From Cheilinus undulatus (lineage: Eukaryota; Chordata; Actinopteri; Labriformes; Labridae), in assembly GCF_018320785.1 (NCBI RefSeq), contig NC_054866.1, forward strand, positions 39,223,000 through 39,286,999: a stretch of 64,000 nucleotides of DNA, written 5' to 3'. A model generated the notes under the pieces. It searched no databases. It had not been told where the DNA came from and worked only from the letters and a program-made list of their open reading frames with translations. This document shows positions 37,170 to 56,687 of this stretch, one piece after another. A program made the position numbers and the translations under genes. Every line of letters starts with the position of its first letter. The stretch's first letter is position 1.

Positions 37170-37236
37170 ATGGGATGCTCAGAGCTGCTGATTCTGGTTC
37201 TACTCCTAAATGTTGCTCACTTCTTGGAGATTCTGG
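37170..37236 (+). CDS. Ig receptor exon 1: signal peptide
   Basis: Starts at the ATG at 37170 and encodes a short polar start (MGCSE) followed by a hydrophobic core (LLILVLLLN), as expected of a secretory signal. It ends in phase 1 at a GTAAGT donor (37237). The upstream ATG at 37160 runs into a stop within about ten codons, which favours 37170. The mature chain probably begins near residue 23, in the next exon. Confidence 0.75.
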
Positions 37237-55200: not shown

Positions 55201-56687
55201 AGAAAAAAAATGGTTCTTAAAATCTACTAATGAAGTCAAGTTCAAATTCAAATATCCTTTACTGGAATGAGTGGTAAAAAAATCATTGTTGCCAAAATGA
55301 GATCAATCAGTCTTTAAGAAGATCCTGGCATTCACCAAAGTTTTCTTATCTGAGATTTCTCCTTAGTGAGGAACAAAATTTAACAACCCCAGAGAGCACT
55401 CTCGCACAATTAAATGCTGATATGATGGTCAAATGATTGATTCTGCTCTTATCAGCACTCAAATATGCTACATTAAGAGACACATATATATAATTAGGAA
55501 TTATATTAAAAATTATTAAAAAAAACAATAGAGTTTTATATAATAAAGTAATATACACAAATGCATGACTGTTTGATCTTAACTGCAAAATGTAAAATTA
55601 TACATATATCTGTAGCCCTTAATGACATTGTCTTCATTAAACACTTATGTAAAACAGTGAAGTACTCAACCTATGTAACTTTTTTCTTTTCTTTTCAGAG
55701 GAATTCTTTTCTTGTTAAAGAGCGATACCTATAATTTGTAAAGACTGCATCATGTTTCACCATGTTTTAATCCAATTTCTGTATTTGTAGCATACATTTA
55801 ATATCCATTACAGGTGCTAAATATATAATTGAATTTGCCATTTCTGCTTTCTTTTAAGCAGCATGAATCCACTTTAGTATCTAGCACTTAAGAGTCCATT
55901 GTGTGATTGTTCTTAACCGTTTCTCTGAATTTGGAAAGTAATGATGCCTTATTATTTAAGTTTTTGCACACAGCCCTGCAGTCTCTTGGCCTCATATTGG
56001 CTTGTTAAAAAGTTTGTTTTTCTGTACTAAATAGGATAAACATGCATAGGCTTCCAGCTTTTAAGCACAAGCATTCATCAATTTAAGAACACAGGTGAGA
56101 ACAATTCAGCAGTTTAAGAAGGTATCAGGTAACTAATGTAGGTTTCTCTTAAAAACTTAAAGGACAAATTTAAGGAAACCTAACGATGATACTGGATAAT
56201 GAGGCCTGTTGATTTTCCTACTCATTTATACACTTGTTTGCCTTTGTCTCTGAAATGTGCTGAACAAGTAAAGCTTTGCATTTCTATTTTATAAACAGAA
56301 TCATTCCTGATTATACAACTTTTTTCATTTTACAGCAAAAGAGAGAAAGAGACGAAGTACAAGGTAAGACTAAATACTGGCAAACAACATGGATATACAA
56401 TCAGGAATCTCATTTTCAACTCAGCTTTATTTTATTCTTTAGCCCAAAGTTCTACAATTGATATCTCCATAATAAAAATAGCATGTTAAAAATTCTCAGC
56501 CTTTTCCCTTGTTGCATTTTTCTCACTGATCCAGAAGCGAGAATCTTTCTCAGCCTTGACGACTTTGATGCAGGAGTCCGCCTCTCATGACGCCAAGAAA
56601 CCATCAGTAACGAGTGAGAAAGATAGTAAGGAGTATGCCCAGCTCATCAGTTACTCCATAGTCATTGACGTCAAGAGTAAAGTGTGA
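37170..56687 (+). CDS. Multi-Ig-domain type I membrane receptor, nectin/PVR-like V domain, candidate ITIM (14 exons, 917 aa)
   Basis: Spliced gene assembled from exons 37170-37236, 40511-40843, 41547-41855, 45781-46056, 46142-46295, 48792-48961, 49058-49339, 49472-49771, 49864-50145, 50250-50412, 52556-52716, 52858-52933, 56336-56363 and 56535-56687. Every intron is GT-AG and the phases join into one open frame of 918 codons including the stop. Order: signal peptide (1-22), V domain (about 23-133), C-type domains (134-236, 237-328), an ICAM-like domain over two exons (329-436), three C-type domains (437-530, 531-630, 631-724), a second split ICAM-like domain (725-832), membrane segment (about 834-857), and a 60-residue tail. 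I count about 20 N-glycosylation sequons. The V domain ends in the nectin-type YxCEF signature; most C domains carry CxVxHP or a close variant. By family this should be a cell-surface adhesion or immune receptor; ligand and cell type are inference. It could be annotated elsewhere as nectin-like, PVR-like or CD96-like. A further exon in the 3.4-kb intron 12 cannot be excluded. Confidence 0.85.
40098..40190. repeat. GTTAGC/GCATGCTAA-type short repeat cluster in intron 1
   Basis: Repeated TTGTTAGC, TTAGCATGCTAA and GTTAGCATGCTGACA units, of the kind scattered through fish genomes. Confidence 0.5.
40511..40843 (+). CDS. Ig receptor exon 2: nectin-like V domain
   Basis: Residues about 23-133. The B-strand Cys lies in VYLRCSY, the core Trp in ALWKR, and the F strand reads GEYVCEFEF, the YxCEF pattern of nectin, PVR and CD226-type V domains. 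Three sequons are present (NVT, NLT, NVS). The acceptor TGTGCCTCAG and donor GTAAGC both keep phase 1. This is the membrane-distal domain and so the most likely ligand-binding face, by analogy with nectins. Confidence 0.85.
41547..41855 (+). CDS. Ig receptor exon 3: C-type Ig domain 2
   Basis: Residues about 134-236. It opens VRPEIQIEV, has the B-strand Cys in VLCSAVGG, a Trp in PEISWLVG, and an F strand SVACVVRHPAL. The NGTSTLSSTLRFP stretch before it resembles the second (CD80-like C2) domain of nectins, PVR and CD200. Phase 1 at both ends. Three sequons. Confidence 0.85.
43232..43774. mobile_element. hAT-like MITE in intron 3 of the Ig receptor
   Basis: Ends CAGTGTTAATTTTGAC and GACGAAATTAACACTA are inverted, flanked by 8-bp duplications CTGTACTG (43224-43231) and CTATACTG (43775-43782) with one mismatch. 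The interior is built of TTTTAGTC/TAGTTTTAGT repeats and has no transposase. Confidence 0.75.
43950..44076 (+). mobile_element. 5'-truncated tRNA-derived SINE, + strand
   Basis: Box B-like GGTTCAAATCTGG at 43965, then a pyrimidine-rich body (CATGTCTCTCCCCCTCTCTC) and the tail AATAAAGGCATAAAAAGCC. Same family as 54935-55109. Confidence 0.65.
45781..46056 (+). CDS. Ig receptor exon 4: C-type Ig domain 3
   Basis: Residues about 237-328. It opens VRPNVTIKA, nearly the same start as exon 3, with Cys in WVVSCISSGG and in NVTCVFDHPKF. The usual C-strand Trp is missing (a Leu-rich ISLALNS sits there), as in some degenerate C-set domains. The domain is followed after only 85 bp of intron by exon 5. 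Phase 1 at both ends. Confidence 0.83.
46142..46295 (+). CDS. Ig receptor exon 5: first half of ICAM-like Ig domain 4
   Basis: Residues about 329-379. It starts in phase 1 (ISEVQLYS) and ends in phase 2 just after GNVPRYNVTC. The GNxP(x)nC stretch resembles the membrane-proximal domains of ICAMs. The position where ICAMs have their first B-strand Cys reads SLQVIG, so that Cys is absent. The only Cys is the one in VTC. Confidence 0.8.
48792..48961 (+). CDS. Ig receptor exon 6: second half of ICAM-like Ig domain 4
   Basis: Residues about 380-436. It begins in phase 2 (KDDGPLTEG) and carries the F-strand motif HAGVYECLLSY, then NITVNPP as the closing strand. Joined to exon 5 it completes one Ig fold, with the two Cys residues about 34 apart. 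Ends phase 1 at a GTGGGT donor. Two sequons (NFT, NIT). Confidence 0.82.
49058..49339 (+). CDS. Ig receptor exon 7: C-type Ig domain 5
   Basis: Residues about 437-530. It opens VPPSIRVDV, with Cys in VIECSAAD, Trp in NMSWLLPEG, and an F strand AECVINHPAFEEP. Four sequons make it the most glycosylated domain. Two extra Cys (PACSP, and PLC at the exon end) could form an additional disulphide. Phase 1 at both ends. Confidence 0.85.
49472..49771 (+). CDS. Ig receptor exon 8: C-type Ig domain 6
   Basis: Residues about 531-630. It opens HPNITVNSS, with Cys in MTVDCSVES, Trp in SITWHVGD, and an F strand NLTCTVEHPSL. Separated from exon 7 by a 132-bp intron and from exon 9 by a 92-bp intron. Phase 1 at both ends. 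Confidence 0.85.
49864..50145 (+). CDS. Ig receptor exon 9: C-type Ig domain 7
   Basis: Residues about 631-724. It opens APQLSVSVV, has Cys in LAVCGCRGEG (two Cys close together), Trp in NLTWDLPEN, and an F strand SLTCVYHLQHEA, where the HP of sister domains has become HL. Its place directly before a split ICAM-like domain mirrors exon 4. Phase 1 at both ends. Confidence 0.85.
50250..50412 (+). CDS. Ig receptor exon 10: first half of ICAM-like Ig domain 8
   Basis: Residues about 725-778. It begins YISSLKVLN and ends in phase 2 after GNVPEYDLNCK, closely matching exon 5 (GNVPRYNVTC). The first B-strand Cys is again absent, with LLQVKG in its place. Donor GTTTGT is weak but gives the correct phase for exon 11. 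Confidence 0.82.
51159..52304 (+). mobile_element. Decayed Tc1/mariner transposon in intron 10 of the Ig receptor
   Basis: Starts TATATGGACAAAAGTGTTTGG and ends in an eroded TACTTTCATCCATTTAGTG inverted end. In between are transposase-derived phrases (GAGCAGTGGAAACGTGGAGT, GGGGCTATTTTTTCAG, CCCAACATGACTGTGCCCCA) in several frames broken by stops. Inserted in the sense direction of the host gene. Same family as 3270-4362. Confidence 0.85.
52556..52716 (+). CDS. Ig receptor exon 11: second half of ICAM-like Ig domain 8
   Basis: Residues about 779-832. It begins SDGLLVQMDG and carries DEGLYTCWASF, the F-strand motif matching GVYEC of exon 6. Ends VELTSQDRLF, close to the membrane. The intron before it (50413-52555) holds a decayed Tc1 element. 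Phase 2 in, phase 1 out, as in exon 6. Confidence 0.83.
52858..52933 (+). CDS. Ig receptor exon 12: transmembrane segment
   Basis: Residues about 833-857. A hydrophobic run of about 22 residues (ICISSGFALILMLIVAVW) ends with AC just before the basic tail start SKREK. There is no charged residue inside the membrane, so pairing with an ITAM adaptor of the DAP12 type is not suggested. Phase 1 in, phase 2 out (GTGAGT donor). Confidence 0.83.
53440..53935 (+). other. GC-richer, coding-like stretch inside intron 12
   Basis: Two overlapping open frames (91 codons from 53454, 128 codons from 53546 ending at 53932) lie between the membrane exon and the tail exons. The second reads VVLPLWSEHLVKVPLGDRAR and later NMTPLEESYFGTSTPCTPPA, which looks less random than its surroundings. 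Possible acceptor TTTTTCAG at 53610 and donor GTCAGT near 53721. No family recognised. It could be an alternative exon, a gene relic, or chance. Confidence 0.25.
54425..54600. repeat. Degenerate AAAGTTGAAAT-type repeat
   Basis: Repeated units such as AATTAAGTTGAAATACTGC, AATAAAGTTGCAACTTTG and AATAAAGTTGAAATACC, of a type common in fish DNA. Confidence 0.6.
54935..55109 (-). mobile_element. tRNA-derived SINE, - strand
   Basis: On the minus strand a box A-like TGGTTGAGTGGTTTATGGC and a perfect box B GGGTTCGAATC (55043-55053) are followed by the family body and a tail at 54935-54980. It ends close to full length on the tRNA side. Lies in intron 12 of the Ig receptor. Confidence 0.8.
56336..56363 (+). 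CDS. Ig receptor exon 13: juxtamembrane basic micro-exon
   Basis: A 28-bp exon between TTTTACAG and GTAAGA, giving the basic stretch KREKETKYK after the membrane. It restores phase 0 for the last exon. Its size and the 3.4-kb intron before it make it less certain than the Ig exons, but it is the exon I found that joins the membrane exon to the final exon in frame. Confidence 0.65.
56535..56687 (+). CDS. Ig receptor exon 14: cytoplasmic tail with ITIM-like motif
   Basis: The last 50 residues and the TGA stop. The C-terminus contains EYAQLISYSIVIDV: Tyr907 sits in I-S-Y-S-I-V, fitting the ITIM consensus (I/V/L/S)xYxx(I/V/L), and Tyr901 sits in YAQL, a YxxL motif without the hydrophobic -2 residue. 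The tyrosines are six residues apart, too close for an ITAM. By family knowledge such a motif can recruit SHP-1 or SHP-2, or act as an endocytic YxxPhi signal. Confidence 0.75.
   Translation, partial: KRESFSALTTLMQESASHDAKKPSVTSEKDSKEYAQLISYSIVIDVKSKV

What the first reader, a model, noticed from the sequence alone, without database searches (positions are those of the whole stretch)
37170..56687. Uncharacterised eight-Ig-domain receptor with nectin-like V and ICAM-like domains
Fourteen exons join in one frame to give a 917-residue type I protein with V-C-C-(split C2)-C-C-C-(split C2)-TM-tail. A nectin/PVR-type V domain (YxCEF) combined with ICAM-like membrane-side domains in one chain is not an architecture I can match to a named vertebrate gene. 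It is the best candidate here for an undescribed fish immune or adhesion receptor.
Basis: partly seen in the sequence, partly recalled or inferred. Interest (0 to 1): 0.75.

Follow-up and report, generated by a model that had tools for sequence, protein, structure and literature searches.

The report
Fish nectin-like receptor, eight Ig domains
A real fish cell-surface protein gene, built from nectin-type immunoglobulin domains multiplied from three to eight, that lies on the same chromosome as a nectin-3 gene in many fishes and has no known function, so it is a new variant of a familiar adhesion-molecule family rather than a new kind of molecule.

The parts
37170..37236 (+). exon 1: signal peptide (MGCSELLILVLLLNVAHFLEIL)
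   Evidence: conserved in relatives
38967..38988 (+). alternative first exon MRTTQNF(C) of public isoform X2, without signal peptide
   Evidence: sequence matched by eye to P0001
40511..40843 (+). exon 2: D1, nectin-type V domain lacking the canonical lock/key motifs
41547..41855 (+). exon 3: D2, C2-set_2, nectin domain-2 type
45781..46056 (+). exon 4: D3, C2-set_2, nectin domain-2 type
46142..46295 (+). exon 5: first half of D4, nectin domain-3 type, phase-2 split
48792..48961 (+). exon 6: second half of D4
49058..49339 (+). exon 7: D5, the most conserved domain; two further invariant cysteines (510, 530)
49472..49771 (+). exon 8: D6, C2-set_2, closest to D2
49864..50145 (+). exon 9: D7, C2-like, closest to D6 and D3
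50250..50412 (+). exon 10: first half of D8, nectin domain-3 type, phase-2 split at the codon aligned with that of D4
52556..52716 (+). exon 11: second half of D8
52858..52933 (+). exon 12: transmembrane segment
56336..56363 (+). exon 13: juxtamembrane tail
56535..56687 (+). exon 14: cytoplasmic tail with ISYSIV (ITIM-like) and C-terminal KSKV (PDZ-ligand type)

Best explanation
The locus is the wrasse copy of the teleost gene annotated si:ch211-149e23.4, an expanded relative of nectin: one nectin-type V domain, then C2-C2-split domains, one extra C2 domain (D5), a second C2-C2-split block, a transmembrane helix and a short tail. Most likely it arose as a duplicate of a nearby nectin-3 gene whose later domains were duplicated again (inferred). 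It most likely works as a long adhesion or recognition receptor: the eight domains hold the V tip far from the membrane, the tip or the conserved D5 binds a partner on another cell or in the matrix, and the C-terminal S/T-x-V/L motif fixes it to a PDZ scaffold, as nectins do with afadin. Shown: gene structure, domain types, loss of the nectin lock/key motifs, tail conservation, same contig as nectin-3-like in other fishes. Inferred: partner, PDZ binding, adhesion. A tyrosine in an ITIM-like motif may add inhibitory signalling in most species, but not in those with phenylalanine there.
Against: No binding, expression or PDZ data. The V domain lacks T[FY]P (0 of 91) and mostly AX6G (5 of 91), which fish nectin-3-like proteins have (119 and 118 of 119, pattern sought anywhere in the domain), so it is unlikely to use the canonical nectin interface. 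The gene evolves faster than nectin-3-like in the same 21 species/copies (D1 53% against 81%), which also suits an immune receptor. Domain classes were compared with nectin-3-like only; other V-C2-C2 families were not used as controls. The V profile scores nectin-1 (36 bits) above nectin-3 (26), and titin (34), DCC (29) and pIgR (26, just below nectin-3) stand among them, so the sub-family of origin is open. The D4/D8 profile alone does not single out nectins (CADM4 27.5, nectin-1 26.5, contactins by summed domains). D3-D7 is not a special pair (58, against D3-D6 82), so the block duplication is supported for D2/D6 and D4/D8 only. In the wrasse no nectin-3 exon was found upstream in the window, and the only wrasse nectin-3-like row lies on another contig, so adjacency there is untested.
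Confidence: 0.6

Rival explanations
1. An inhibitory immune receptor of the PVR type: the ITIM-like tyrosine recruits phosphatases after the V tip meets a ligand on other cells.
For: ITIM-like [SIVLT]xYxI[VI] near the end in 88 of the 107 proteins that have the KSxV-type ending; V domain in the nectin/PVR/TIGIT/CD96 group; fast evolution compared with nectin-3-like.
Against: Of those 107, 13 have phenylalanine and 3 neither residue at that place; no lock/key motif; the most conserved domain is D5, not the tip. No expression data.
Confidence: 0.25
2. The fish positional counterpart of CD96: mammalian CD96 lies just downstream of NECTIN3 on the same strand (recalled), as this gene seems to lie with nectin-3-like, so both could descend from one ancient nectin-3 tandem copy.
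For: Same contig as the nearer nectin-3-like copy in 25 of 27; fused models imply same strand with nectin-3 upstream; CD96 V domain is among the profile hits, E 0.012, 19 bits.
Against: Nectin-1 scores 36 bits and TIGIT equals CD96; the CD96/CD226/TIGIT key (L/T)YP is absent, [LTI][FY]P 0 of 91 (motif from passages of PMC5966540); no tactile-named protein among the 12 hits of the third search; fish papers list a cd96 as T-cell transcript: Atlantic salmon 'T-cell surface protein tactile-like' (passages of PMC7593592, and PMC8415484) and tilapia (passage of PMC8818700), which I take to be another gene but did not check; the right-hand neighbour here is rrp8, not the human one (recalled).
Confidence: 0.12
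3. Not an independent gene: the exons are alternative 3' exons of the nectin-3-like gene, and the 8-Ig forms come from an internal promoter.
For: Models of 1308, 1208 and 1257 aa in Labrus, Oryzias and Oncorhynchus nerka join nectin-3 D1-D3 to the start of this V exon, leaving out nectin's own tail.
Against: Only 3 of the 120 listed clusters are over 1000 aa; this gene has its own conserved signal-peptide exon; nectin-3-like has its own tail in models such as P0121, 554 aa. Read-through of two tandem genes explains the models equally well.
Confidence: 0.1

Closest known systems
Nectin-3 / nectin-3-like of teleosts
   Same: V domain, C2-set_2 second domain, domain-3 type, C-terminal PDZ-ligand motif; nearer copy on the same contig in 25 of 27
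   Different: three Ig domains against eight; nectin-3-like keeps T[FY]P and AX6G, this gene does not; tail ends KSxV here, EWYV in P0121
PVR (CD155, necl-5)
   Same: nectin-type V and C2; fast evolution; ITIM-like tail
   Different: PVR has three Ig domains, an ITIM and no PDZ ligand (passages of PMC7286890); here eight domains and a PDZ-ligand motif
CD96 (tactile)
   Same: V domain of the same broad group; recalled position next to NECTIN3
   Different: CD96 has three Ig domains, a Pro/Ser/Thr-rich stalk and the (L/T)YP key (passages of PMC5966540)
Drosophila echinoid
   Same: a long multi-Ig, nectin-like junction protein bound to the afadin orthologue (discussion of PMC7286890)
   Different: seven Ig plus a fibronectin domain, not a direct nectin homologue by that paper; no comparison made here
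ICAMs
   Same: several Ig domains, type I
   Different: no ICAM family among the Pfam matches; split domains align to nectin domain 3

Membership tests
nectin (nectin-1 to -4) | ectodomain of one V and two C-type Ig domains (PMC7286890) | tested here: not met
   eight Ig domains
nectin (nectin-1 to -4) | V domain closest to nectin V domains | tested here: met
nectin (nectin-1 to -4) | lock AX6G and key TFP in the V domain (PMC5966540) | tested here: not met
   AX6G 5 of 91, T[FY]P 0 of 91; fish nectin-3-like 118 and 119 of 119
nectin (nectin-1 to -4) | C-terminal PDZ-binding motif (PMC7286890) | tested here: met
   [KR][ST]x[VL] at the end of 107 of 120 listed proteins; motif only, binding untested, and not nectin's own EWYV-type end
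nectin (nectin-1 to -4) | binds afadin | not testable with these tools
   no binding data
PVR/necl-5 | ITIM present and PDZ ligand absent (PMC7286890) | tested here: not met
   ITIM-like in 88 of 107, but PDZ-ligand motif present
CD96 | (L/T)YP key in the FG loop of the V domain (PMC5966540) | tested here: not met
   [LTI][FY]P 0 of 91
CD96 | orthology by tree or two-sided synteny | not tested
   no tetrapod CD96 sequence or fish genome was in reach; human order is recalled
ICAM | ICAM-type Ig domains | tested here: inconclusive
   no ICAM family among Pfam matches at E<=1 for the protein or its eight domains, but no ICAM profile was compared directly

The most novel reading that the evidence does not exclude
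Teleosts carry a compound nectin-3 locus in which a tandem nectin copy grew to eight Ig domains, lost the canonical nectin interface and gained split domains with a displaced disulfide (C strand to F strand), and read-through splicing makes three-, eight- and eleven-Ig receptors from one locus.
Probability: 0.3. Interest if true: 0.6.

Novelty: new variant of a known kind. Interest (0 to 1): 0.42.

Why it matters
The nine human nectin-family proteins are described as having one fixed three-domain shape (legend passage of PMC7286890). An eight-domain relative found in fishes from salmonids to wrasses suggests that the ectodomain can grow by duplication of domains, and that the canonical lock/key can be lost while a PDZ-ligand motif stays. 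Its place on the nectin-3 chromosome and the fused models make a simple RNA-seq test possible, and a domain tree with CD96 would say how nectin-adjacent immune receptors arose.

Tried and rejected
ICAM-like membrane-side domains: not supported. CD96 as direct counterpart: kept only as a weak rival. The third protein search, with profile A4 of D1-D4 and a length range meant to shut out full-length fish models, gave 12 hits; the ten with an organism name are fishes and none is called tactile or CD96. The method needs shared exact words, so this shows no absence elsewhere. Solved-structure search with the D4/D8 profile: contactins lead by summed domains; nectin-1 domain 3 has 26.5 bits, CADM4 27.5, LRIG1 27.7, so this search alone does not single out nectins. 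Foldseek order by E-value is led by long Ig arrays (CEA model, titin), which says only 'Ig rod'. ICAM and other families missing from the structural lists are not excluded by that. The nectin-3 part of the long Labrus/Oryzias/Oncorhynchus models was sought in the window: no nectin-3 coding exon upstream of the gene; the hits are this gene's own exons and weak scattered matches. Rfam and tRNA scans of the window: none.

Literature: 10 searches. No paper held contains 'ch211-149e23.4' or '149e23'. Subscription papers and preprints are not covered. Papers opened: PMC7286890 (abstract, passages, section 9, section 11 part 1 of 2), and passages only of PMC5966540, PMC8415484, PMC7593592 and PMC8818700.

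Corrected on checking: my first contig table (28 species/copies) had left out four species whose listed nectin-3-like lies on another contig (Sparus, Etheostoma spectabile, Chaetodon trifascialis, Oncorhynchus masou). The full recount is. It did not change my odds, since those four rows are the farther paralogue.

Full report
What is there. The window is from humphead wrasse (Cheilinus undulatus): residues 24-917 of the joined protein are contained letter for letter in the public protein P0001, 'uncharacterized protein si:ch211-149e23.4 isoform X2'.

How widespread. The search listed 120 of 158 proteins at E<=0.001. Of the 120, 116 bear an organism name and all are teleosts, from Osmerus, Esox and salmonids to labrids; four have no name. 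Only the 7994 candidates sharing most words were scored and 38 hits were not shown, so absence outside teleosts is not shown. The clone-style name implies a zebrafish gene (recalled), but no zebrafish row was seen. Names given are uninformative (uncharacterized, hemicentin, nectin-2, poliovirus receptor-like, syg-2).

What its domains are. Pfam gives a V-set and several C2-set_2 domains; taken alone, D4 and D7 match no Ig family and D8 only below cut-off (V-set E 0.08). Profile-profile comparison of the eight domains (91 rows each) with the three domains of 119 fish nectin-3-like proteins, of 120 returned, sorts most of them: D1 with nectin D1; D2, D3, D5, D6 with nectin D2; D4 and D8 with nectin D3. 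D7 is hardly related to nectin D2 (probability 13) and joins D6 and D3. The strongest internal pairs are D4-D8 (126) and D2-D6 (96), and the phase-2 introns that split D4 and D8 lie at aligned codons. This suggests duplication of a C2-C2-split block with D5 between, although D3-D7 (58) is weaker than D3-D6 (82). A limit: no other V-C2-C2 family was put through the same comparison.

A displaced disulfide. In D4 and D8 the place of nectin's B-strand cysteine holds Leu, Phe, Met, Val or Ile in all 91 sequences (Leu in 86 and 88), and the place of its C-strand tryptophan holds cysteine in 91 of 91 (places taken from the alignments). The conserved cysteines are 34 and 31 residues apart, as in domain 2 of CD4 (recalled). 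I could not measure the bond.

Beside nectin-3. Contig lengths served as contig identity. In the full recount 32 species/copies appear with a contig in both lists and 25 share it. The nectin-3-like rows fall into a nearer group (69% identity or more to the Labrus nectin part) and a farther one (67-68%): 25 of 27 share the contig in the nearer group (not Oryzias latipes and Salvelinus alpinus), 0 of 5 in the farther (Cheilinus, Sparus, Etheostoma, Chaetodon, Oncorhynchus masou). With four more species it is 26 of 29 and 0 of 7. Most of these contigs are chromosome-sized, so this shows linkage, not adjacency; Centroberyx affinis (590,615 bases) and the consecutive tags UPYG_G00199960/70 of Umbra are closer evidence. 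Models in Labrus, Oryzias and Oncorhynchus nerka, the only ones of the 120 over 1000 aa, run from nectin-3 D1-D3 straight into this gene's V exon, at the same place by eye (the pattern matched two of the three). These are predicted proteins, not reads. In the wrasse no nectin-3 exon was found upstream in the window, so adjacency there is open.

What the tip and tail say. The lock and key of nectin-family binding (AX6G; TFP or (L/T)YP; passages of PMC5966540) are mostly absent: T[FY]P 0 of 91, AX6G 5 of 91, [LTI][FY]P 0 of 91. The C-strand motif [VI][ST]Q (recalled) is 5 of 91 against only 12 of 119 in nectin-3-like; it separates the two only in a relaxed form, 6 against 112. The tail ends [KR][ST]x[VL] in 107 of 120; of the other 13, four end right after the transmembrane segment, one is marked partial and eight end otherwise. 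Among the 107, 91 have tyrosine, 13 phenylalanine and 3 neither in the ITIM-like place. So the PDZ-type end is the firmer feature. Mean pairwise identity over 21 species/copies: D1 53%, D5 72%, last 23 residues 68%; nectin-3-like D1 81%, transmembrane and tail 88%. The gene evolves faster than nectin-3-like, and its middle domain D5 is the slowest part. I have no explanation for D5.

Reading. Best fit: a nectin-derived, long, PDZ-tethered adhesion or recognition receptor whose partner is probably not bound by the canonical nectin interface. The immune-inhibitory reading is open. The CD96 reading rests on position and meets counter-evidence. The paper on nectin evolution (abstract, passages, section 9 and part 1 of section 11 of PMC7286890) gives all nine human members three Ig domains, and mentions extra fish nectin relatives without describing this one in what I read.

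Verdict. Real, ordinary in kind, unusual in architecture, already in databases without function. New variant of a known kind.

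Noticed in passing
P0245, P0246, P0247: Short models in Lampris, Tautogolabrus and Acanthochromis end after the V and first C2 domain, as a secreted two-domain form would.
   Followed up: no
P0006, P0029, P0044, P0093; window 52934-52937: Four models end just after the transmembrane exon without a tail; in the wrasse, reading past exon 12 meets a stop at once (by eye).
   Followed up: no
P0244: In Centroberyx affinis a second model on a contig of the same length (590,615 bases) joins the V and first C2 domain to a repeat-rich stretch; PF16064 is among its precomputed domains.
   Followed up: no
window 49058-49339: D5 is the most conserved of the eight domains and has two further invariant cysteines (510 and 530).
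   Followed up: partly
P0124: A record labelled Lampetra planeri (lamprey, contig of 30,367 bases) is 84% identical to the Labrus nectin-3 part; it may be contamination.
   Followed up: no
window 36258-36599: Minus-strand remnant with a weak Tc3-type transposase helix-turn-helix match (E 0.0003, below Pfam's cut-off).
   Followed up: partly
window 51871-52134: Intron 10 holds a stretch that looks by eye like a broken Tc1-type transposase; Pfam did not match it.
   Followed up: partly
window 37083-37113: (CA) repeat, 15.5 copies, 56 bases before the start codon.
   Followed up: no
window 9203-9640: Tandem array with units of about 30 to 126 bases.
   Followed up: no
window 60053-61746: Methyltransf_8 (rrp8 type) on the minus strand, convergent with this gene.
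   Followed up: partly
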